A stretch of 64,000 nt of DNA. Origin: Actinobaculum massiliense. Its GTDB lineage: Bacteria > Actinomycetota > Actinomycetes > Actinomycetales > Actinomycetaceae. Below the pieces are notes generated by a model, which was not told where the DNA came from, made no database searches, and saw nothing but the letters and a program-made list of their open reading frames with translations. Each line of letters opens with the position of its first letter. The stretch's first letter is position 1. Positions 47,485 through 58,857 of this stretch are shown here, piece after piece. The position numbers and the translations under genes were made by a program. Where the stretch lies: positions 877,896 through 941,895 of the forward strand of contig NZ_LN881717.1 in the NCBI RefSeq assembly GCF_001457435.1, written 5' to 3'.

Positions 47485-47508
47485 CTGACCTCGCGGGTCG
47501 AAAACGCG
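47485..47508 (+). repeat. Upstream element shared by the two DapB-like gene copies (left copy)
   Basis: A 24-base block beginning CTGACCTCGCGG is found again with one change at 57763-57786. Both lie 36-49 bases before the ATG of a DapB-like gene copy. The block shows that the duplication includes upstream sequence and may contain a promoter or operator. Confidence 0.75.
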
Positions 47509-47543
47509 AATAGACCAAACACATTTAGTGCCTGGAGGCAAAA

Positions 47544-47955
47544 ATGCGAGATCAAATTCGTGTCGTAATTAAAGGGCTTGGCGTTGTGGGCAAGCAGTTT
47601 GTCGATGAGGTTTTGAGGCGCGGCGTCGACGTCGTCGGCGTGGGACGCTGACGTGACCATCCTCGGTACTGGAATTTAAGACGTCTTTTGGACGCTCTTG
47701 CCAGCAGTGCTCACCGGCGGTACCCACGCCATCGAACGTATCGAAGGGCAATCCCTTGGAATTATGGACGCCTGGGGACCAGTGGTTATGGAAGAGTCCC
47801 GGATTGGCTGGACGATGGAGAAGTTTGAAGAGGCTTACCGCGCCGCGGTGGGCGAACCCGAGCATCTCGATCCGGGCGCGATCGCGCTTTACGCAGTGGC
47901 GAACCGCGGCACCCTCGGAATCCCGATTCGTGTCATGAGTGTGCTGTTAATCTGA
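47544..47955 (+). pseudogene. Broken copy of the DapB-like dehydrogenase gene at 57835
   Basis: After GGAGG and an ATG the first 33 codons match the intact gene (IRVVIKGLGVVGKQFV in both). The reading frame then meets a stop (47649-47651) where about 95 codons have been deleted. Homology resumes in another frame with VTILGTGI, a TAA (47677-47679) replacing a glutamine codon, then DVFW, GPVVMEESRIGWTME and HLDPGAIALYA. It ends near codon 210 of 340. So it has an internal deletion, frameshift, nonsense codon and 3' truncation. It lies between xylA and the defence genes, 10.3 kb from the intact paralogue in the same orientation. Confidence 0.92.
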
Positions 47956-48020: not shown

Positions 48021-50555
48021 ATGAAGGGCAGCGTCGATTACATCCAGAGAATTTACGACAGTTCCGGAAATCGGATCATCATTCCTGTGTACCAGCGCAA
48101 CTATGACTGGGGAACGAAACAATGCGCGCAACTCTTCGATGACATTGAGGAAATGATAGGCACCGGGCGCGATTCGCATTTCTTTGGCTCCGTCGTCGAA
48201 CAACTTGAAAGCTACCGCGAGCGCGTAATCATCGACGGCCAACAGCGTCTCACCACCATTAGCCTGCTCATTTTGGCGCTGTGCGACGCCGTCGACGCTG
48301 GAACGCTCGCGTGCGACGACCCACTCCTTAGCCGACGGTTGCGAAAGAACTACCTCATCGACGACGACGGCGACGGAACGAAACTCAAGTTGAAGCCCGT
48401 CAAAGCTGATGACAGTGCTTATCGGCATCTGTTTGGCTCCGAAGCGGACTACGACGAAACGTCCAACCTCACCGCAAATTACCGGTACTTCCGGAAACGC
48501 TTCACGGAGACGACGATCCCGGGTGACGTGTTTTGGGAGAAAGGAATTACCCACCTACAGGTCATGGTTCTTGACCTTGAGCCTGCCGATTCACCTCAGC
48601 GAATATTCGAGTCTCTAAATTCGACCGGCCTTGCGCTCAAAGAGTCAGATAAAATCCGGAACCTAGTGCTGATGGGGCTCGACCACCATACGCAGGAGCG
48701 GCTGTATGAGACTCGTTGGAATCCGATTGAGAAGAACGTCAACTTCGAAACCGACCGTTTCGTGCGTTGGTACTTAGTGGTAAAGACTCACAAGACCCCG
48801 AAAGAATCTGAGGTTTACGAAGCGTTTAAGCAGTACCTGAAAGGGCCTGACCGCGTTGGACGAAGCGCTCAAACCGGAGGCACCGGCGAGCTCTCGCCCG
48901 GACGGGCCGGTGTGGCACACGCCGATGAAACTCCCACATCGATCGAGAGCGTACTCAAAGATATGCACGAGTATTCGCGCTATCACCGAGAAATCACCAC
49001 CGCGCAAACAGGGATCGCCGAGGCAAACCTCATCCTCCATCGCGCACGCGCACTCCTCGGCGGAGTTTTCCTTCCCTTCCTCATGCCCGTGCTGGCGGAC
49101 GTTCACGCCGGCACGGTACCCGGTTCTGACTTTGTTCGAATTTTACGCATCCTCGAAAGCTATATGGCTCGCCGAACGGTGGTTTCGGCAGGCTCCAATG
49201 CGCTCAATAAGATTTTTTCGTCGGCTTATCCCGACCTGGTCTCGCTACGTAAGCACAGTGAGCCGTATCCAGATATCTTGGTTTACCTGCTTCGCAGGCG
49301 CGATGGATCAAGTGGACGTTTCCCCGACGACGCCGAGTTCACCGACGCCTTCACAACGCGCAACTTCTATCGTTTGAGCCCACGAAACACCCAATATTTC
49401 TTTGATGCACTAGAAAATGAGGGCTCTAAGGACCGCGTAGACATAGCGGGAAACTTGGATAAGGGCGCTATCTCGATTGAACATATAATGCCGCAAGCCC
49501 TCACTGCCAAATGGCGTGCGGATCTAGGCCCTGAAGCAGAACAGATACACACCATCTGGGCTAACCGCGTCGCGAACCTGACCGTCACCGGCTATAACTC
49601 CGAGTATTCAAATCGGGATTTCACAACCAAGAAAAACGCCACAAACGGTTTCGCCACCTCCCCTTATCGGCTCAACGGTTTCGTGAAGGAGTGCGACGAG
49701 TGGGGCGAAGAGCAACTCGAAGAAAGATCGCAAATACTCCTGAAATCCGCACTACAACTCTGGCCACTCCCGGAGACCTCCTTCGAGCCGGAGGTCACGC
49801 CACGGCCCTCGTGTTCCCTGGCGGAATCTGATGGACTCACCGGTGTGAAGGTGACGGCATTCGAATACGGCGAGGTGAGAAAACCGGTTCATACCTGGGC
49901 GGAAGCCCTCTCTGAAGTGCTCAAGGTACTTATTCAGGATCATCGAATAGATTTGCTAGCGCTAGCTCAAGTACGCCAAGGGTTACGCACCTCGCGCGAA
50001 GGAATCCCCGAGGACGCAAAATTTGTTGAGCTTGATCCCGGGCTTTTCGTCCAAACTTCCTCAAGTACTCTCCAGAAGATGGCGCTCCTGCGCGCGGTTT
50101 TTGAACAGGCGAACCTCGACCCAGAAGACCTCGTCTTCACCCTCGGGGGTAGCGAATCAGAATCCTCTGCTTCGGGCGACAGCGACCGCCCAGCCCCAGC
50201 TTCTTCGAACCACGATTCACCCTACGCGACCCTTCTCGCGTTCATTCCAGAATTTGAGCGCTTAGGCGCTGATGAAAACCCGCAAAATCTCCTTTCGCGA
50301 TTTTCGGCGGCCTTTACTCCCTTCCGCGCAGCTCAGCCCACAGAAATTCTCAGTGGCACGCAAGAAGAGTTCGAGCTACGCACACAGGGAGAGACCATCG
50401 CCCAGGAAGAAGCCCTCGTGGTCATCTCGCAACATCTGGACACGGCGGATCAGGTTGCTGGTCTGGAATCGGTGATGGGCCCAGCCTTCGTAGAATCCGG
50501 GCTAAGAAAAATCGGGAAGAAAATCTTGGCGCATTTGAAGGTTTTGACAAAGTAG
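48021..50555 (+). CDS. DUF262/DUF1524 protein, GmrSD-like modification-dependent nuclease candidate
   Basis: An 844-residue single-chain protein. The DUF262 ParB-like domain has IPVYQRNYDW (21-30) and DGQQRLTTIS (about 72-81), the nucleotide-binding signature of GmrS. DUF1524, an HNH-type nuclease domain, has ISIEHIMPQ (near 484-492) and the following N-x-x-N-L-T and F-x-x-K segments (near 515-535). Residues about 600-844 are an extra domain I do not recognise. Such proteins (GmrSD, BrxU, SspE relatives) cut modified or phage DNA. AGAGGGAAGC precedes the ATG at 48021. It is followed by a 36-bp palindrome and a restriction-modification operon in the same direction. Confidence 0.82.
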   Translation: MKGSVDYIQRIYDSSGNRIIIPVYQRNYDWGTKQCAQLFDDIEEMIGTGRDSHFFGSVVEQLESYRERVIIDGQQRLTTISLLILALCDAVDAGTLACDDPLLSRRLRKNYLIDDDGDGTKLKLKPVKADDSAYRHLFGSEADYDETSNLTANYRYFRKRFTETTIPGDVFWEKGITHLQVMVLDLEPADSPQRIFESLNSTGLALKESDKIRNLVLMGLDHHTQERLYETRWNPIEKNVNFETDRFVRWYLVVKTHKTPKESEVYEAFKQYLKGPDRVGRSAQTGGTGELSPGRAGVAHADETPTSIESVLKDMHEYSRYHREITTAQTGIAEANLILHRARALLGGVFLPFLMPVLADVHAGTVPGSDFVRILRILESYMARRTVVSAGSNALNKIFSSAYPDLVSLRKHSEPYPDILVYLLRRRDGSSGRFPDDAEFTDAFTTRNFYRLSPRNTQYFFDALENEGSKDRVDIAGNLDKGAISIEHIMPQALTAKWRADLGPEAEQIHTIWANRVANLTVTGYNSEYSNRDFTTKKNATNGFATSPYRLNGFVKECDEWGEEQLEERSQILLKSALQLWPLPETSFEPEVTPRPSCSLAESDGLTGVKVTAFEYGEVRKPVHTWAEALSEVLKVLIQDHRIDLLALAQVRQGLRTSREGIPEDAKFVELDPGLFVQTSSSTLQKMALLRAVFEQANLDPEDLVFTLGGSESESSASGDSDRPAPASSNHDSPYATLLAFIPEFERLGADENPQNLLSRFSAAFTPFRAAQPTEILSGTQEEFELRTQGETIAQEEALVVISQHLDTADQVAGLESVMGPAFVESGLRKIGKKILAHLKVLTK

Positions 50556-50624
50556 TGCCGCAGCTACGGCTTCACTTCGGTGGTGATGGGAACCGTGTCG
50601 GAGACTCCTTTTAGACTGACGGCA

Positions 50625-50660
50625 TTGAAACGTTTGGGACCGCGGTCCCAAACGTTTCAA
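50625..50660. promoter_or_regulatory. Perfect 36-bp palindrome between the DUF262 gene and the restriction-modification operon
   Basis: The 18-base left arm TTGAAACGTTTGGGACCG is followed directly by its exact complement, with no spacer. It lies 69 bases after the DUF262 gene stop and 119 bases before the first methylase homologue. No T-run follows on the plus strand. As DNA it would suit a dimeric regulator; as RNA it would form a long hairpin that could stop transcription. Confidence 0.75.
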
Positions 50661-50779
50661 AGTTGGGGCCGCAGGTACACTGAGAATACCCGTATACCAG
50701 GCGGTAATCTCAACTACATCTATTGAGATGTGCCGATGGTTCTTCACACGCCAAGTCAAAAGATGAGGAGGCTCCGAGC

Positions 50780-51448
50780 TTGACTGATCTATTTCCACGA
50801 CCGAGCGAAAAATTGGTCAAGTCCAAACAGCGAGTATCCGACCACGGAGAGGTCTTCACCCCAAAGCACATCGTCGAAGCAATGCTTGACTTGGTTAAAG
50901 ACGAATCAGAACGAATTGACGCAAAAGTGCTTGAACCGGCCTGCGGCGAGGGTATCTTCCTCATGGAGGTACTACGAAGGAAACTGACCACCGTAAAAAC
51001 GCGTTACGGCAAGAACTCTTTCGAGTCGCGTCACTATGCACTCCTCGGGTTGATGTCGCTATATGGAATTGAAATACTCCCCGACAACGCGGAGGTATGC
51101 CGAAATAATCTCGCGCGGATCATACTCAATTTCCTTGATGAACCGGATGATTCTGTTTGGGCGGACGCTATTCGAACGGTCCTTTCAACCAATATCGTCC
51201 GAGGAGACGCGCTTACGATGAAAACAACCGAGGGCAACCCGCTGGTGTTTCCCGAATGGGGATATCTCGGTAAAGGGAAGTTTCAGCGCCGCGATTTCGA
51301 GTACACAAACCTCACCGAACGGAGTTCATTCTCCGGAACACTTTTTGACGACTTAAGCGAGAGCGAAGTCTCCAAATTCTTCAGCCCTAGAACAGACTAT
51401 CGCCCCGTGACTGTCGAAGATCTCGCTGAAAGCTGGCGTACTAAATGA
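50780..51448 (+). CDS. N6-adenine methylase homologue with motif I but no NPPY motif
   Basis: About 222 residues. HGEVFTPKHIVEAMLDLV resembles the methylase motif X region, VLEPACGEGIFLMEVL is motif I (SAM binding) and YGIEILPDNAEVCRNNL is motif II. No catalytic D/N-P-P-Y is present; the corresponding place reads EGNPLVFPEW. It is probably not a stand-alone methylase and may pair with the full methylase that overlaps it by 4 bases. I prefer the TTG at 50780, 8 bases after GAGGAGG, over an in-frame ATG at 50723 that lacks a ribosome site. Confidence 0.75.
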   Translation: MTDLFPRPSEKLVKSKQRVSDHGEVFTPKHIVEAMLDLVKDESERIDAKVLEPACGEGIFLMEVLRRKLTTVKTRYGKNSFESRHYALLGLMSLYGIEILPDNAEVCRNNLARIILNFLDEPDDSVWADAIRTVLSTNIVRGDALTMKTTEGNPLVFPEWGYLGKGKFQRRDFEYTNLTERSSFSGTLFDDLSESEVSKFFSPRTDYRPVTVEDLAESWRTK

Positions 51449-53127
51449 TCCAATCGCCACTTCGCCCACATAATCCAGATGTCCTGACCTGTATCGCCAA
51501 TCTTTCGAATGATGAGGTGTTCACACCACCGACGATTGCGAACAAGATGCTTGATCAAGTTGCGGATGCTTGGCGACAAAATTACGACGGCGCAGATATC
51601 TGGGCGGACCCTACGGTCACTTTTCTCGATCCCTGCACAAAATCTGGCGTTTTCTTACGCGAAATTACTCGACGCTTCGTCGATGGCTTGGCCGGTAAGA
51701 TACCCAATCTGCAAGAGCGCGTAAATCACATCCTCACCCGCCAAGTTTTTGGGCTCGCCATCACTAATCTCACCGCCCTGCTCTCACGCCGCAGCGTCTA
51801 CTGCTCAAAGTGGGCAAATCGTGAGCATTCAATCTGTACCGAGTTTGATGGCGAAAGCGGTCACATTTGGTTTGACCGCACCGATCACACGTGGGTCGGT
51901 GGTACACGCGAAGCGCGAGTAAATCCCCGTAGCGGAGCTGATGAATTCATTTACAAGAATCGTCGGTGCTCCTTCTGTGGTGCGAGCGAGGCAGAATACG
52001 CTCGCGCGGAAGATTTAGAAACTCACGCCTACGAATTCATCCACACGGACGACGTAGTCGCCAGGTTGAACGAGATATTTGGAGAAGAGATGCATTTCGA
52101 CGTTGTGATCGGCAACCCGCCATATCAACTCTCTGACAGCGGCCATGGGGTGAGCGCCAAGCCCATTTATCATAAGTTCATTGAGCAGGCGAAGAACTTG
52201 GATCCGAAAATGCTTTGTATGGTCGTACCAGCTAGGTGGTTCTCAGGCGGAAAAGGTTTAGATGCTTTCCGCGCGGAGATGCTAGGAGATGACCGCATCG
52301 CCGTGCTACACGACTTCCCCGATAGTCGTGACGTATTTCCAGAGGTAGATGTCGCTGGAGGAATCTGCTATTTTCTTTGGTCCGCAACACACTCTGGAGA
52401 TACCGAAATAACCACTCACAGGGGAACCTCCACGACTACTTCACTGCGATCGCTTCTTGAACCAGGAAATGACATATTTCTACGGGACGAGAGGGCGATC
52501 CGCATACTCAAGAAGATCTACGCCAAGGAGATGTCCGTCCCCTTCGAGGACGCACTTACAGTTCTCCCAGAATCTCTCCAATTTGCGGGCCAGGTTAGTG
52601 CCAGGAAACCTTTCGGTTTCCCAACAAACTTCCATGGAAGCACTAAAAAATCATCCCAAAAAAGCGTAAGACTTATCAGTAAGACTGGAGTCCAATGGGT
52701 TTCCCGAACAGAGATTCTGAATAATCTTGACACAATCGATATGTGGAAAGTTTTTACGTCAAACGCCTCTAACGACCACGCTGGGCAGCCGGACAAGAAC
52801 GGAACGCGGCGAGTGCTGGGAAGAACCGGAATCCTAGAACCCAACACTGCCGTAACTGAAACGTACATTTTATTGGGCACCTTCGACATCCCCGAATCAG
52901 CGGAAAGTTGCCTGTGCTATGTAACCACGAAGTTCACCCGTTTTCTAATATCGCTCAGGACTTCAACACAACACATCACGCGGGGCAGATTCCGCTACGT
53001 ACCTATCCAAAAATGGGATCATATGTACACAGACACGGAACTCTACTCGAAATATAACTTAGACGCTCGCGAGATCGAGCTGATCGAGAACTCTATTCGT
53101 CCAATGGACGGAGGAAACGATGTCTAG
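51445..53127 (+). CDS. Eco57I-type N6-adenine DNA methyltransferase
   Basis: A 560-residue methylase. DEVFTPPTIANKMLD (motif X-like), FLDPCTKSGVFLREI (motif I, near 60-74) and the catalytic FDVVIGNPPYQLSD (motif IV, NPPY near 222-226) are complete. Cysteines in VYCSKWANREHSIC and RRCSFCG could form a zinc site before motif IV. The C-terminal half (about 330-560) is the likely DNA target recognition region. It overlaps the upstream methylase homologue by 4 bases and the downstream helicase gene by 8, so the three form one operon. It should protect host DNA from the cassette's nuclease. Confidence 0.87.
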   Translation: MIQSPLRPHNPDVLTCIANLSNDEVFTPPTIANKMLDQVADAWRQNYDGADIWADPTVTFLDPCTKSGVFLREITRRFVDGLAGKIPNLQERVNHILTRQVFGLAITNLTALLSRRSVYCSKWANREHSICTEFDGESGHIWFDRTDHTWVGGTREARVNPRSGADEFIYKNRRCSFCGASEAEYARAEDLETHAYEFIHTDDVVARLNEIFGEEMHFDVVIGNPPYQLSDSGHGVSAKPIYHKFIEQAKNLDPKMLCMVVPARWFSGGKGLDAFRAEMLGDDRIAVLHDFPDSRDVFPEVDVAGGICYFLWSATHSGDTEITTHRGTSTTTSLRSLLEPGNDIFLRDERAIRILKKIYAKEMSVPFEDALTVLPESLQFAGQVSARKPFGFPTNFHGSTKKSSQKSVRLISKTGVQWVSRTEILNNLDTIDMWKVFTSNASNDHAGQPDKNGTRRVLGRTGILEPNTAVTETYILLGTFDIPESAESCLCYVTTKFTRFLISLRTSTQHITRGRFRYVPIQKWDHMYTDTELYSKYNLDAREIELIENSIRPMDGGNDV

Positions 53128-55687
53128 TCCCGACGTGCTTTTTCCTTCAAAACCCAGCCCGCAACTTCGGATATATGCTTGGTCCCCCAAGTATCCGCCA
53201 GCAGGGTATGAGGGACTTATCAAAATTGGGCAGACCACGAAGCAGAACGTCAATGATCGAATCCGTGAATCGCAAGGTCAGATGCAACAAGCCTACACGC
53301 TTCACATTGACGAACCAGCCGAACGAAACGACGGATCGATCATTCGCGATACTGACGTAATCCGCCGCCTTGTTGCCAAGGGCTTCGAGAATCCTCATTT
53401 CGGATCCGCCAGGGAGTGGGTACGCACCACTCCGGAGGCGGTGCTTAGTGCAATCACTGAGTTAAGATCCGGGAAAGCACTCTCCCATCATCGTTATCAG
53501 AGTTTCGCGATGCGCCCAGAGCAGGAAGCTGCGGTGAGAAAGACCCTCACCTACTACCGCTCAATTTGGGAAGAGGATCCAACAGCAACCCCCAGGTTCC
53601 TGTGGAACGCGAAGATGCGTTTTGGGAAAACATTTACGACTTACCAGCTCGCTAAGCGCATGCGCGCAAAGCGGGTTCTTGTCGCAACATTCAAACCAGC
53701 CGTGCAGGATGCTTGGAAGGAGGATCTCGAATCCCACGTTGATTTTGAAGGATGGGAGTATCGCAATGCGTCGTCGTCACGAGGCCTCCTAGAAATGGAC
53801 CCAGAAATCCCCGTGGTTTACTTTGGATCCTTCCAAGATCTACTTGGCAAAGACAGAAACACCAGGAAATATAAGGCCAAGAACGATTGGATACACCGCG
53901 TTCACTGGGACCTCGTAGTCTTTGACGAATACCATTTCGGCGCGTGGCGCGAATCTGCGAAAGAGCTCTTTGAGGGCGAAGATCCGGAGGAAATTCAAAA
54001 GGAGTTTTCCTCGTCGCTCGAGACCGACTTCGACACTTTCGACGAAGAGCTAGATGAGCTTGGAAATAAGGAAAACGATTTTCTCCCTATTGGCACCAAG
54101 GCGTTTCTCTACCTTTCCGGCACCCCCTTCCGAGCACTCGCGACAGGGGAATTCATCGAAGAACAGATTTTCAACTGGACTTATACAGACGAACAACGCG
54201 CGAAACAGCATTGGGAAGTAGACCATCCTGGGGAGCAAAATCCGTACCGTAGTCTCCCTGAACTACGGCTCATGACCTATCAGATGCCCGACGATATCAT
54301 CTCAGTGGCAAACGAGGGGGAGTTTGACGAATTCGACCTCAACGAGTTCTTTTCCGCTACCGGCGCCGGTAAAGCTGCACGTTTCAAACATGCATCTGAG
54401 GTACAAAAATGGCTCGACCTTATCCGTGGCGACCACGCCCCAACCCAACTCGACGCCTTGCGCGCTGGGGAGCGCCCGCCTTTGCCCTATGCAGATGTAC
54501 GCCTCCTTCCCTACCTTCAGCATTCGATGTGGTACCTACCAAGCGTTGCAGCCTGCTACGCCATGGCTAATCTCTTGAAATCCCGAAATAACACATATTG
54601 GCACGACTACCAGGTTCTTGTAGTCGCTGGGCCCGCTGCGGGCGTCGGCGTCGCTGCACTCCCGCCAGTTCGTCAGGCAATTGGTGATGGCCACGAAACA
54701 AATACCATCACTCTAACTTGCGGCAAGCTCACCACCGGAGTCACTGTAAAACAGTGGTCAGCGATTCTCATGCTTCGCAATCTCGGAAAACCGGAAACGT
54801 ACTTCCAAGCGGCTTTCCGCGTGCAATCACCCTGGTCAATCAAGAATCCCGACGGCGACGATCCCTCACGCGAAGAGGTTCTCAAACCGGTCGCTTTCAT
54901 TTTCGACTTCGCCCCCACCCGAGCCCTCAGGCAAGTTGCCGAGTATGCTTCCGGTTTGCATCCTCAAGCTTCAAATCCAGAAAAAGCAGTCGAGGATTTG
55001 ACGAACTTCTTACCCGTTCTCGCTTACGACGGGGCGAATATGACTCAAGTCGATGCGGGCGGCATCCTCGATATCGCCATGTCTGGAACCTCTGCGACTC
55101 TGCTCGCACGTAAGTGGGAATCGGCAATTCTAGTCAACGTCGATAATTCGACTCTGCGACGGATTCTCAACAATGAGCGCGCGCTCGAAGCCATAATGAA
55201 TATCGAGGGTTTCCGCGCCCTCGGAAATAACGTCCTTGAAACCATCATCAATAAGAGTGAATCTGTTTCTCACAAACGAAAGAGCAAGGGCGAAGAGCTC
55301 TCCCGGCAAGAAAAGAAAGAGCTGTCGCAGGAAGAGAAGGAATACCGATCCAAGCGCAAGCAAGTTCAAGAAAAGCTCATAAAGTTCGCAACCCGAATTC
55401 CAGCTTTCATGTATCTCACGGATTTCCGGGAAAACACGTTGCAGGATGTCATTACGAAAATAGAGCCCGATCTCTTCAAGGTCGTTACAGGACTCTCCGT
55501 CGAGGATTTCCACTTGCTTGTCAATCTCGGTGTTTTCAACTCGATCCACATGAACCAGGCTGTGTTCGCATTTCGTCGTTACGAGGATGCGTCACTCTCC
55601 TATACAGGGATTCGATCACACAAGGACCTGCGCAAGGTTGGCCTGTTCGACACCGTTATCACCCTTGAAACTGAGGATTCCCCATAA
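53120..55687 (+). CDS. Restriction protein: GIY-YIG-like nuclease domain fused to SF2 helicase
   Basis: An 855-residue protein. The N-terminal domain (about 15-105) contains YEGLIKIGQTT followed by a conserved arginine, resembling T5orf172/MUG113 variants of the GIY-YIG nuclease fold. The helicase/translocase core follows: Walker A KMRFGKTFTT (near 165), Walker B DEYH (near 268-271), motif III LSGTPFRA (near 333) and a C-terminal RecA lobe with LTCGKLTTGVTV and FQAAFRVQSPW. Residues about 710-755 are a Lys/Glu-rich coiled coil. Paired with the upstream methylases it is the likely restriction subunit. Its last codons abut the remnant of an MmeI-like gene on the other strand. Confidence 0.85.
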   Translation: MSSPDVLFPSKPSPQLRIYAWSPKYPPAGYEGLIKIGQTTKQNVNDRIRESQGQMQQAYTLHIDEPAERNDGSIIRDTDVIRRLVAKGFENPHFGSAREWVRTTPEAVLSAITELRSGKALSHHRYQSFAMRPEQEAAVRKTLTYYRSIWEEDPTATPRFLWNAKMRFGKTFTTYQLAKRMRAKRVLVATFKPAVQDAWKEDLESHVDFEGWEYRNASSSRGLLEMDPEIPVVYFGSFQDLLGKDRNTRKYKAKNDWIHRVHWDLVVFDEYHFGAWRESAKELFEGEDPEEIQKEFSSSLETDFDTFDEELDELGNKENDFLPIGTKAFLYLSGTPFRALATGEFIEEQIFNWTYTDEQRAKQHWEVDHPGEQNPYRSLPELRLMTYQMPDDIISVANEGEFDEFDLNEFFSATGAGKAARFKHASEVQKWLDLIRGDHAPTQLDALRAGERPPLPYADVRLLPYLQHSMWYLPSVAACYAMANLLKSRNNTYWHDYQVLVVAGPAAGVGVAALPPVRQAIGDGHETNTITLTCGKLTTGVTVKQWSAILMLRNLGKPETYFQAAFRVQSPWSIKNPDGDDPSREEVLKPVAFIFDFAPTRALRQVAEYASGLHPQASNPEKAVEDLTNFLPVLAYDGANMTQVDAGGILDIAMSGTSATLLARKWESAILVNVDNSTLRRILNNERALEAIMNIEGFRALGNNVLETIINKSESVSHKRKSKGEELSRQEKKELSQEEKEYRSKRKQVQEKLIKFATRIPAFMYLTDFRENTLQDVITKIEPDLFKVVTGLSVEDFHLLVNLGVFNSIHMNQAVFAFRRYEDASLSYTGIRSHKDLRKVGLFDTVITLETEDSP

Positions 55688-57452
55688 CATAATTGCATTC
55701 AGTCGCCGAGATAACGCGATCCCAGTCCATGCGCAGGGCATTGCCTTCGTGGATTCACGCGGATTTACGTAGGGGCAGGTTCGGCAATTCGGTGAGCACA
55801 ATCGATTCGGTTTCAATATTTGCCTGAAGCTCGGCAATCCACAGGGCCGTGCGCGCTACCGCCACCGCAAAATCATTGATCTCGATTCCGTGGAACTGTT
55901 TTAAGCTCACTTTTACCTGGCTTTCCTGCGCTTCTCCCAGGCCGATCATCGTCTGAGAGCCATATTGCTTTGGTTGCGCGGTGCCGCCTTCCAAGCCGTC
56001 ACCCCAGCCCTGCAGATCCTCACGGATGGTTTTGGCACGGGACACCTCGCTTGCATTCCTTTGTCTTGGCTCATCGAAAGAGTCTGCCATGCGCGTGGTT
56101 CCAAGGTACTTAATCACCGTGTTTTCGAGGCGGCGCAATTCGATATACGTTTCCGTTAAGAAATTTCCCGAGCCGCAGGCCGGATCAAAGAACTCCAGGG
56201 AGGTAAGTCTATTTTGATATTTGACCAGACGGTTGCGCAGTTGACGCGGAGTGAGCGACTCGTTAGTAAGGACCGCATTCAGATCAGATTTCAGATCATC
56301 TAAAAAAGCGGATCGATCACTTTGTGAATGTTTTCCGGGCTGGTGTAGTGCATTCCACCCGCGCGGCGAGTTTGCGGATTAAGGGTCGATTCGAAAACGC
56401 CACCGAAAATGGTGGGCGATATTTGCGACCAATCAGTGCTTTGGGAGACTTTATTAATGAGTAGATCGCAGATTTCCTCGGTAAAATTCGGTATTTCTTC
56501 CACGCCCCGGAAAAGGCCGCCGTTTACATAAGGGAACTGGGTGAGCTCCGGAGCCAGATACGGATCGCGATTCGCTTCCGGAGTATCAAGCACCTCGAAT
56601 AACTTGAGTAAAGCGCTACGGGTTTGCGACGGCGTATATTCGCGCAAATACGACCACAGCGCATCCTTGCGGAACAACCCGGCATCCTCCGCAAAAAGGC
56701 AAAATACTAGACGCACGCATAGCACATTGAGGGAGTGCTGTGATTCGGGCGAATCCGGATTGAGGTATTGCTCGCGTAGGGCGTCATATAGCTGGCCGAT
56801 GAGCTTACCGGCTTCAACCGAAACTTTTTTCTCCCGCACCGCACGGGCAGATTCTGGACTATTCAAGAACCCGAGGAGGGCGCGCTGTTTGGGTAATTCC
56901 TCCAGCTGAAACTCCACGTATTTATTTTCCGGATCAGCCTTATTGAGGTCATGTATACGGAACGTATGGAAATTCGAAACAATAATGTGATCGGGCCGCT
57001 CCCGGTTAGGTAGCGAATCCGCGTAGCGCTTGGCCTGCTGATAGGGAGTAACAAAATCGCCTTGGCGTTTTTCCGGGACGTCAAGATTAACTGACCGGGA
57101 TTTTTGTTCGACCAGGGTCTTAGCCTCGGGAATAATGACGTCGATAAATCCGCCCGCGTTTGTTCTCTGCTCAAACCGGGCAACGGTTGCGGCGTCGTCC
57201 ACACCGTAAACTCGGCGCAAAAGATCCACCCAGAAAGGTTGCGTATCGCCTTTTTCGTAACCGCGGTTTTTTCCATTTTTCAGCAAATTCACGCGCCGCT
57301 CGCCGCGCCGCCCGCTCACGACTACCCGGCACCTCAAAACTTTCCCGCACCCGCTCCTCCAAACCCGAACGCTCCGCGCAGTAACGCGCCCGCGCCGCAA
57401 ACCCGGGCCGCAGATTAAGGTTGCCTTCCCGGTTCGCTCCGCTCACAGTCAA
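55676..57452 (-). pseudogene. Decayed MmeI-like (type IIL) restriction-modification gene, cut off at motif IV
   Basis: Pieces in three frames read as one MmeI-family protein. Order: AAREFAEKWK, a frameshift in an A6 run (57267-57272), then RGYEKGDTQPFWVDLLRRVYG and the nuclease-like IDVIIPEAKTLVEQKSR. A second frameshift lies in another six-base homopolymer (56302-56307). Then come FFDPACGSGNFL (motif I) and FHGIEINDFAVAVARTALW, and an in-frame TGA (55755-55757). The final piece, NALRMDWDRV, ends in YVMGNP, the start of motif IV. Homology ends there, inside the last codons of the opposing helicase gene. The target recognition half is gone, so the gene cannot work. Confidence 0.88.
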
Positions 57453-57487: not shown

Positions 57488-57834
57488 GGGCATCCTAGTT
57501 GGTTACGCGGCGAAGAAGAGCGGGCACCAGATTGTTTACTCAATCATTGCGACGTAACCGGTATGCCAAAATGATCGGTTCAGCTACCTGCTCAGGAGGG
57601 ACATCAGAGCACTGTCCCGCCCGCGGCCCGCTCTTCCCGTCCGCGGCCAGTCCTTTACACTCGTAGTCTACGCAGATATGCATCAGCGCTCGGCGCGTAT
57701 CCACAGCCTTCATTCGCGCGCGTAACCGCTCGCAATCACGCATCAACCTTGTAGACTCCCTTCTGACCTCGCGGATCGAAAACGCGCATTGACCGTTACT
57801 AGGGGCCGCAACTTGCGGCTAACCGGGAGGAAAA
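57488..57834. other. Gap between the MmeI-like remnant and the intact DapB-like gene
   Basis: 347 bases. The left 270 hold no convincing gene; a minus-strand frame of 68 codons (57540-57746) has no family features. The right end carries the shared upstream block (57763-57786), a small perfect repeat GCCGCAA-C-TTGCGGC (57805-57819) that is absent from the pseudogene copy, and the GGGAGG ribosome site of the DapB-like gene. Confidence 0.6.
57763..57786 (+). repeat. Upstream element shared by the two DapB-like gene copies (right copy)
   Basis: Matches 47485-47508 at 23 of 24 positions, beginning CTGACCTCGCGG and ending GAAAACGCG. It lies 49 bases before the ATG of the intact gene. Confidence 0.75.
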
Positions 57835-58857
57835 ATGGCAGAACCTATCCGTGTAGTTATCAAAGGGCTTGGCGTCGTTGGCAAGCAGTTTGTGAGCGAA
57901 TTTCTTGAACGCGACGGCGAGGTAGTCGGAGCGGTTGACGGCTGGGACAAAATCATTGGCGCCGATCTGGGCACGCATTGCGGACGCGCAGAACTCGGAA
58001 TCCAAATCGAAAAGGATCTCGACGCCGTTCTCGATCGGACCCATCCAGACGTTCTAGTGCTCGCTAACGCTTCGGCAATTTCCGATCAGGAAGCTGATAT
58101 TCGCGCCGCCATCACCCACGGAGTGAATGTTGTAACCTCGGCAGAAAACGCTTTTTACTGGCGTCGCATCGAACCGGAACTGGGCGGGCAGCTCGACGCC
58201 GAAGCACGCAAAGCCGGAGTTACCATCCTCGGAACCGGAATCCAGGACGTCTTTTGGGCGCTACTTCCCGCGGTTCTGAGCGGAGCCAGCCACAGTGTTG
58301 AACGCATTTCCGGTAGCACAGTGGGGATTATGGACGGCTGGGGCCCGGTAGTTATGGAAGAATCGCGCATCGGCTGGACCATGGAACAGTTCGAGGCAGC
58401 GAAGTCTCCGCAAACCGAGCACCTTGATCCGGGCGCGATTGCTCTCTATGCTCTGGCAGATCGCCTGGGCCTTACCGTAACCGGAGAAGATACTCGCGTG
58501 GATCCGGTAACCCACGATCAGCCGCTTTTCGCCAAGGCTTTGGATCGGGAAATTCCGGTGGGCGAGCTTATCGGCAACGCGGCTACCCTGGAGCTGAAAA
58601 CGCGCGAGAGCGTCACCCTCTCTTCCACATTCACAGCCCGGCTTTCTACTTTTGAGGGAGAAACCGAAAAGTCCGTATGGGAGATTTCCGGGCGACCGCC
58701 CCTAAAGATCGCCGTTGACGATATCCGCGGAGATATGACGACCACGAGCGCCATGATCAACCGCCTTCCGGACGTTATCAACGCTTCGCCCGGTTTCCTG
58801 ACCGTGGCAGATCTGCCCGCCCCGCGTTACCGCGCACGGCTCATTAAGGAGCAGTAG
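57835..58857 (+). CDS. DapB-like NAD(P)-dependent dehydrogenase (2,4-diaminopentanoate dehydrogenase-like)
   Basis: A 340-residue dehydrogenase with an N-terminal Rossmann fold: VIKGLGVVGKQFV gives the G-x-G-x-x-G at residues 11-16. Central segments GTGIQDVFWALLP and GWGPVVMEESRIGWT resemble the dihydrodipicolinate reductase-like group that includes 2,4-diaminopentanoate dehydrogenase of ornithine fermentation. No other ornithine-degradation gene is visible here, so the substrate is uncertain. GGGAGG lies 4 bases before the ATG at 57835. It is convergent with the LacI gene, stops 6 bases apart. A broken copy lies at 47544-47955. Confidence 0.78.
   Translation: MAEPIRVVIKGLGVVGKQFVSEFLERDGEVVGAVDGWDKIIGADLGTHCGRAELGIQIEKDLDAVLDRTHPDVLVLANASAISDQEADIRAAITHGVNVVTSAENAFYWRRIEPELGGQLDAEARKAGVTILGTGIQDVFWALLPAVLSGASHSVERISGSTVGIMDGWGPVVMEESRIGWTMEQFEAAKSPQTEHLDPGAIALYALADRLGLTVTGEDTRVDPVTHDQPLFAKALDREIPVGELIGNAATLELKTRESVTLSSTFTARLSTFEGETEKSVWEISGRPPLKIAVDDIRGDMTTTSAMINRLPDVINASPGFLTVADLPAPRYRARLIKEQ

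What the first reader, a model, noticed from the sequence alone, without database searches (positions are those of the whole stretch)
50780..55687. Three-gene restriction cassette: methylase lacking motif IV, full Eco57I-type methylase, and GIY-YIG-like/helicase fusion
The genes overlap (4 and 8 bases) and so act together. The first methylase homologue has SAM motifs X, I and II but no NPPY, the second is complete, and the restriction protein pairs a T5orf172-like nuclease domain with an SF2 translocase. This differs from classical type I (no S subunit) and type III (nuclease domain at the wrong end and of the wrong fold). The half-methylase may help recognise or flip the base, as in other paired methylases. 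I do not know a characterised system with exactly this set.
Basis: partly seen in the sequence, partly recalled or inferred. Interest (0 to 1): 0.62.

Follow-up and report, generated by a model that had tools for sequence, protein, structure and literature searches.

The report
DrdVI-type restriction system, split methylase
This is an intact copy of an already named but little-studied bacterial anti-virus system (the DrdVI family), and comparing its relatives suggests that its DNA-marking enzyme is assembled from halves of two proteins, while a leftover third half belongs to the cutting machine.

Summary
The three overlapping genes are real and intact, but not an unknown set: the same operon lies on plasmid pDrdVI of Deinococcus wulumuqiensis NEB 479 (M1 52%, M2 50%, R 63% identical), where cloned M1+M2.DrdVI put N6-methyladenine in GCAGCC; a second published member is MaeIV (GCACY). 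The window holds a new member. R joins a T5orf172 (GIY-YIG superfamily) domain to an SF2 translocase. One correction: M2 is not a complete methylase. In 69 of 69 M2 proteins checked, a lysine replaces the first glycine of the SAM motif, whereas M1 keeps its SAM motifs and has no NPPY (0 of 70). Gene fusions show the units: M1 joins directly to the NPPY half of M2 (two phage solo methylases; two operons with R), and the degenerate half of M2 (M2N) can sit at the C-terminus of R. M2N was found in 49 of 49 viral loci with R (47 by profile or motif, 2 by eye) and in 1 of 12 without. I infer that M1 plus the C-half of M2 is the methylase and that M2N serves R. Known family, new member; the partition is the interesting part.

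The parts
50780..51448 (+). M1: half-methylase (motifs X, I, II; no motif IV), M1.DrdVI homologue
   Evidence: ORF; Pfam N6_Mtase E 8.3e-8; 51.9% identical to M1.DrdVI over 210 aa; start codon uncertain (50780 or 50813)
50933..50959 (+). M1 motif I EPACGEGIF (canonical SAM loop)
   Evidence: [DE]PxxGxG in 69 of 70 M1 proteins
51445..53127 (+). M2: Eco57I-type methylase, M2.DrdVI homologue
   Evidence: Pfam Eco57I E 5.9e-33; 50.1% identical to M2.DrdVI over 555 aa
51445..52089 (+). M2N: degenerate SAM half of M2 (DPCTKSG at 51628-51648); boundary with M2C approximate
   Evidence: K for first G of motif I in 69 of 69; lies at the R C-terminus in some systems
52090..53127 (+). M2C: catalytic half, motif IV NPPY (52114-52125) plus presumed target-recognition region
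   Evidence: NPPY in 69 of 69; stands alone or fused to M1 in related systems
53120..55687 (+). R: restriction/translocase protein, R.DrdVI homologue
   Evidence: 62.9% identical to R.DrdVI over 862 aligned columns; 356 relatives among 365 pattern matches in genome contigs
53156..53473 (+). T5orf172 (GIY-YIG superfamily) nuclease domain, residues about 13-118; invariant R47, D77, E99, W100
   Evidence: Pfam PF10544 in 25 of 26 members; alignment; predicted b-b-a-b-a, 10-residue block pLDDT 72-88 over residues 11-120
53495..54205 (+). SF2 helicase/translocase lobe (Walker RFGKT, DEYH, SGTPF), residues about 126-362
   Evidence: ResIII; fold match to SWI2/SNF2 proteins and type ISP LlaGI/LlaBIII, Z 13.6

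Best explanation
A DrdVI-family, presumably ATP-dependent restriction-modification system. M1 and M2 together methylate adenine in a short site (unknown here). Inferred: the working methyltransferase is a two-chain enzyme in which M1 supplies the SAM-binding half (motifs X, I-III) and the C-terminal half of M2 supplies the catalytic NPPY and target recognition. R, held by the degenerate N-half of M2, engages when the site is unmethylated, translocates by its SF2 motor and cuts with its N-terminal T5orf172 domain. Shown by sequence: family identity, intact genes, motif partition, gene-unit fusions. Shown by others for DrdVI: methylation by cloned M1+M2. Inferred: the pairing of halves, the role of M2N, translocation and cleavage.
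For: Same three genes in the same order on pDrdVI at 52/50/63% identity; M1-2.DrdVI cloned, m6A in GCAGCC; DrdVI called a fused translocase and REase, with a GIY-YIG relative; MaeIV 'split methylase'. Around the 80 kept R loci M1 was detected in 72 and M2 in 77. Reciprocal motif loss. One-chain M1+M2C methylases without R nearby in two phage contigs, and M1+M2C fused beside R-M2N in L261 and L266. M2N in 49 of 49 R+ loci (47 by profile/motif; 2 by eye) and in 1 of 12 R- loci; Fisher p 3.6e-8 on 53 cluster representatives with the 2 by-eye loci counted as M2N-negative.
Against: No activity is known for this copy. The pairing M1+M2C is inferred from fusions; no complex was modelled. In the window M2N and M2C are one chain and could fold together, leaving M1 as a partner only. 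The model of the L101 fusion left its M1 half poorly resolved (segments with pLDDT under 50: 1-25, 36-51, 139-142, 154-184, 189-201, 203-211), so the joint active site is not shown. Only 5 of the 12 R- loci have over 5 kb on both sides, and one R- locus (L224) keeps a short tail piece of M2N (28 aa, 22 bits). The nuclease acid is D77 in 26 of 26, where I recall glutamate as usual in GIY-YIG enzymes.
Confidence: 0.8

Rival explanations
1. M2 alone is the methyltransferase, with a variant SAM site (K in motif I), and M1 is an inactive SAM-binding regulator or recognition helper, as the first reader proposed and as in METTL3/METTL14 (recalled).
For: M2 has the length and order of an Eco57I methylase and NPPY; M1 lacks NPPY in 70 of 70.
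Against: Canonical motif I in 0 of 69 M2; M2C occurs as a separate gene or fused to M1 without M2N; the phage solo forms L101 and L106 keep M1 and lack M2N.
Confidence: 0.2
2. The partition is only decay: M2N is a relic duplicate of the SAM half without a role.
For: M2N has lost the glycine and usually the motif II acid.
Against: The lysine is kept in 69 of 69 M2 and in the far relatives read by eye (SKTG, SKSG, SKMG, SKNG, MKSG, TKSG); M2N tracks R (49 of 49 against 1 of 12).
Confidence: 0.1
3. A categorically new defence system outside known R-M families.
For: No NCBIfam model names it: R has no hit and M1 and M2 only hits far under the cut-offs.
Against: DrdVI and MaeIV; PADLOC already has a 1359-aa type IIG profile hitting both R (E 3.4e-29) and M2 (E 1.1e-45).
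Confidence: 0.02
4. The copy is intact by sequence but silent or only modifying.
For: A DrdVI-like system in Bibersteinia trehalosi is fragmented and inactive (passages); no promoter-like site was found in 50400-51000 by the simple scan.
Against: All three frames are open with conserved motifs; the promoter scan covers a sigma-70 consensus only.
Confidence: 0.15

Closest known systems
DrdVI (M1.DrdVI, M2.DrdVI, R.DrdVI), Deinococcus wulumuqiensis NEB 479, plasmid pDrdVI
   Same: Same three genes, same order, 52/50/63% identity; m6A by cloned M1+M2 shown there
   Different: Different host; the C-half of M2 is only 45% identical, so the site cannot be assumed to be GCAGCC
MaeIV, Methanococcus aeolicus (M1-M2, GCACY)
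   Same: Described as a split methylase/RM family similar to DrdVI (passages)
   Different: Archaeal; its sequence was not compared here
OspHL35III-type 'type IIG-like' systems
   Same: Methylase, translocase and a GIY-YIG family endonuclease in one system (figure legend)
   Different: There the methylase is MmeI-like in one protein, and translocase and nuclease are separate proteins
Type ISP enzymes LlaGI and LlaBIII
   Same: SF2 motor fold (Z 13.6) joined with a methylase in ATP-dependent restriction
   Different: Single polypeptide with an Mrr-type nuclease (recalled); here three chains and a T5orf172 domain
M.AquI and M.EcoHK31I, two-chain cytosine methylases
   Same: One methylase made of two polypeptides (passages)
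   Different: C5 class, different split points; here the two chains are homologous and one keeps an extra degenerate SAM half

Membership tests
DrdVI family (split methylase R-M) | M1, M2 and R homologous to DrdVI over full length | tested here: met
   51.9% over 210 aa, 50.1% over 555 aa, 62.9% over 862 columns
DrdVI family (split methylase R-M) | Operon order M1-M2-R | tested here: met
DrdVI family (split methylase R-M) | M1+M2 methylate adenine at one motif | not testable with these tools
   reported for DrdVI and MaeIV in print; needs methylome data here
T5orf172 / GIY-YIG superfamily | Pfam T5orf172 in the R N-terminus | tested here: met
   22.5 bits, cut-off 20; 25 of 26 members at E up to 1
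T5orf172 / GIY-YIG superfamily | Catalytic Tyr, Arg and acidic residue | tested here: inconclusive
   R47 and D77 in 26 of 26; the acid is D where glutamate is usual (recalled)
Type IIG (single-chain RM) | Endonuclease and methylase in one polypeptide | tested here: not met
   three genes; the DrdVI paper nevertheless labels that system IIG; fused R-M2 relatives exist
Type I R-M | HsdS subunit with two recognition domains | tested here: not met
   no specificity-subunit family among the 6 window proteins scanned
Type III R-M | Res with C-terminal PD-(D/E)XK nuclease | tested here: inconclusive
   no such family in R; much of the C-terminal part poorly modelled
Type ISP | Single polypeptide with N-terminal Mrr nuclease, motor, methylase, TRD | tested here: not met
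   three chains; N-terminus is T5orf172

The most novel reading that the evidence does not exclude
M2N is a deliberately SAM-dead copy of M1 that belongs to the restriction subunit, and the catalytic/recognition half M2C can be served by either: with M1 it methylates, with M2N-R it reads the same site without being able to methylate and launches restriction. The system would then choose between modification and cutting by swapping the SAM half under one shared recognition half, and phages carry M1+M2C fusions as ready-made self-protection against it.
Probability: 0.2. Interest if true: 0.62.

Novelty: new member of a known kind. Interest (0 to 1): 0.4.

Why it matters
The window's system itself is one more copy of a common, mobile and named family. 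What matters is that the family is widespread (356 relatives from one genome scan), sits on plasmids and viral contigs, and is barely described in the papers held (DrdVI is named in three that I found). The gene fusions give a simple testable rule for how its split methylase is built and why a second, SAM-dead half travels with the nuclease, and they point to phage solo methylases (one in a T7-like phage) that may be counter-defence against it.

Tried and rejected
Looked for a natural M1-M2N-M2C single chain, to model which half packs on M2C: none seen in the 80 kept genome loci, the 64 and 43 viral loci or among the strong hits in 396 genomes of the window's own phylum (genomes unnamed). In one search, 91 of 396 genomes pass E 0.001, but only 14 (own genome included) have E under 1e-20; the weaker ones look like generic N6 methylases and were not used.

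R model: mean pLDDT 58.7, pTM 0.37; the listed fold matches are to the motor part, so the GIY-YIG assignment rests on the Pfam hit, the invariant residues and the predicted strand/helix order. A profile search of PDB sequences with the N-terminal alignment gave no nuclease; its best hit was a fimbrial protein, E 0.009. The methylase alignment A4 had no PDB sequence hit at E 0.01. L101 fusion model: residues 174-504 match CamA and M.BseCI, Z about 15, rmsd 4.1-4.6 over 281-297 residues in the top five rows; its M1 half is low confidence, so the joint SAM site is not tested.

Site specificity was not predicted: the C-half of M2 of the window and of DrdVI are only 45% identical. A 36-bp perfect palindrome upstream of M1 is single in the genome and not a family feature: arms of 12 or more in 2 of 67 homologous upstream regions. 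A type III or type I label was dropped (membership test).

Paper searches bearing on what is in print: open-access papers only; in the passages read, none describes the M1/M2C/M2N partition, but subscription papers and REBASE pages were not searched. Papers seen: PMC6430315 whole text; passages of PMC4996451, PMC10113651, PMC12602166, PMC4752239, PMC12707154, PMC3404938; others as listings only. PMC4996451 already noted a Bibersteinia ORF like M1 at its N-terminus and M2 at its C-terminus.

Rows dropped before counts: searches use loci whose match spans at least 195 (M1), 530 (M2) or 800 (R) query residues: 69, 68 and 77 of the 80 loci, plus the window. These loci were found through R and are the 80 best of 356, so they are biased to intact close relatives. 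One search kept the best 80 of 138 relatives. One search uses 61 of the 78 loci L210-L287 (M2C at least 180 bits; L155 from the same listing left out); R is counted on the same strand only (L243 has a second system on the other strand). L251 and L252 were scored 'no M2N' by profile and read as M2N (SKNG) by eye.

Full report
OBSERVATION. The three ORFs are at the stated places, on the + strand, overlapping by 4 and 8 bases. M1 has N6_Mtase similarity (E 8.3e-8), M2 Eco57I (E 5.9e-33), R ResIII (E 1.4e-5). The N-terminal 127 residues of R, scanned alone, hit T5orf172 at 22.5 bits (cut-off 20), and 25 of 26 members of the alignment hit it at E up to 1, the best at 1.1e-12. In the R model that region has 10-residue block pLDDT of 72-88 and the order strand-strand-helix-strand-helix. 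R47, D77, E99 and W100 are invariant in 26 of 26. The motor lobe (126-362) matches SWI2/SNF2 proteins and type ISP LlaGI and LlaBIII (both Z 13.6; rmsd 2.9 and 3.5 over 161 and 179 residues).

FAMILY. A scan of one genome for each of 84,980 species with R gave 356 relatives out of 365 pattern matches; the best 80 are 63-76% identical, mostly over the whole length, in several phyla by their record titles. Around these 80, M1 was detected in 72 and M2 in 77; several misses lie near contig ends, others have broken M2. The 4-base M1/M2 overlap holds in 55 of 65 loci. Plasmids: R matches in 79 records. Phage records: 5. Viral contigs: 43. One plasmid is pDrdVI of Deinococcus wulumuqiensis NEB 479, whose three genes are 52, 50 and 63% identical to the window's. 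[quoted passage not shown] coli ER2796.

MOTIF PARTITION. In 70 M1 proteins: FTP-type motif X 70, canonical motif I 69, motif II acid 70, NPP[YFWH] 0. In 69 M2: NPPY 69, canonical motif I 0, DPxxK(S/T)G 69 (61 KSG, 8 KTG), and a motif II form without the acid in 63. So M2 is not a complete methylase by sequence, and M1 and M2 miss complementary parts.

GENE UNITS. Relatives redistribute three units: M1; M2N (the degenerate SAM half); M2C (NPPY plus the C-terminal region). (a) M1 | M2N-M2C | R: the window, DrdVI. (b) M1 | R-M2N-M2C in one chain: Enterococcus and viral contigs. (c) M1 | M2C | R-M2N: phage contig L199, L262, L268 and others. (d) M1-M2C in one chain | R-M2N: L261, L266. (e) M1-M2C in one chain, no R in the locus: L101 and L106 (the same contigs as L225 and L238). 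L101 sits beside a phage RNA polymerase (E 3e-224) and a gp2.5-like protein; L106 beside a minor head protein (E 4.3e-8). In L101 the M1 part is 64% identical to M1.DrdVI over 201 columns and the M2C part 44% to M2.DrdVI over 347; in L106 69% over 173 and 40% over 346. The M2C of L106 clusters at 80% identity with that of a complete system, L234. (f) M2C and M1 as separate genes, no R in the stretch fetched: Tenacibaculum phage PTm1; sequence upstream of its M2C resembles the end of an M2N by eye, as if R-M2N had decayed. A PHROG profile (11371) matches the end of M2C before M1, suggesting a permuted order too.

TEST. If M2N serves R, it should be present with R and absent from solo methylases. 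(searched through M2C, not through R) kept the best 80 of 138 relatives. Of the 78 loci L210-L287, 61 have M2C at 180 bits or more. 49 of these have R on the same strand: M2N in 47 by profile or motif and in the other two (L251, L252) by eye as SKNG. Of 12 without R, 1 has M2N (L222), and its contig ends 2.1 kb downstream, so R may be cut off; L224 keeps a 28-residue piece of M2N (22 bits, under my threshold). With L251 and L252 counted against, Fisher p is 2.2e-9 on all loci and 3.6e-8 on 53 cluster representatives at 80% identity. Limits: 7 of the 12 R- loci lack 5 kb on one side; several are decayed or of another kind (L254 and L264 keep a canonical DPxNGxG SAM half of their own); loci share ancestry; viral contigs may include plasmids or prophages. 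Decayed operons with a piece of M2N and no R also exist (L116, L122).

MECHANISM. Best reading: M1+M2C is the methyltransferase and M2N an R-associated module that keeps a conserved lysine in a dead SAM loop. Whether M2N merely docks R or replaces M1 on M2C in restriction is open; the second is the bold case (0.2). Model of the L101 fusion: mean pLDDT 76.1, C-half like CamA and M.BseCI (Z about 15), M1 half poorly resolved. So the shared active site is inference.

CONTEXT. Upstream lies a GmrSD-like gene (48021-50555; GmrSD_N E 1.1e-32) and downstream pieces of an MmeI-type enzyme on the - strand. A decayed paralogue of the gene at 57835-58857 lies at about 47485-47882 (four aligned blocks, 74-91% identical). 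The one other genome of the genus held has no R match; its xylA homologue is next to a large gene that I read as helicase-like, without a profile search, and not to this operon. The cluster looks like an acquired defence island (inference).

VERDICT. Known family, intact new member; interest lies in the partition and the phage solo methylases, not in novelty of the operon.

Noticed in passing
48021-50555 (+): GmrSD-type (DUF262-like) type IV restriction gene directly upstream of the operon, with about 270 aa after the GmrSD_C domain.
   Followed up: no
55755-57400 (-): Fragments of an MmeI-like enzyme (N-terminal, spacer and the start of the methylase part) in two pieces: a truncated remnant.
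   Followed up: partly
50625-50660: Perfect 36-bp palindrome between the GmrSD gene and M1, single copy in the genome, stable as a hairpin (101-nt stretch z -3.7); not a feature of homologous M1 upstream regions.
   Followed up: partly
47485-47882 versus 57763-58439: Decayed, diverged paralogue of the gene at 57835-58857 on the other side of the island, same strand.
   Followed up: partly
L101 317-1879; L106 5653-7224: Single-chain M1+M2C methylases in phage contigs with no R in the locus, one in a T7-like phage: possible self-protection against DrdVI-type restriction.
   Followed up: partly
L134, L135, L137-L142, L144-L149: Short M1-like proteins (about 134-197 aa) in viral contigs. In the 14 of these looked at (+ strand ORFs of 100 aa or more starting within 2.5 kb downstream) only L146 has a later gene with an NPP motif: function unknown. 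L143 and L150 not looked at.
   Followed up: partly
L044, L048, L057, L063, L068, L074, L077, L081: Gaps of 0.28-2.0 kb between M1, M2 and R in some operons, which may hold extra genes; not examined.
   Followed up: no
M2 residues 175-178 (51967-51978): A CxxC pair inside the degenerate N-half of M2 (a CxxC occurs in 68 of 69 M2), perhaps part of a zinc site.
   Followed up: no
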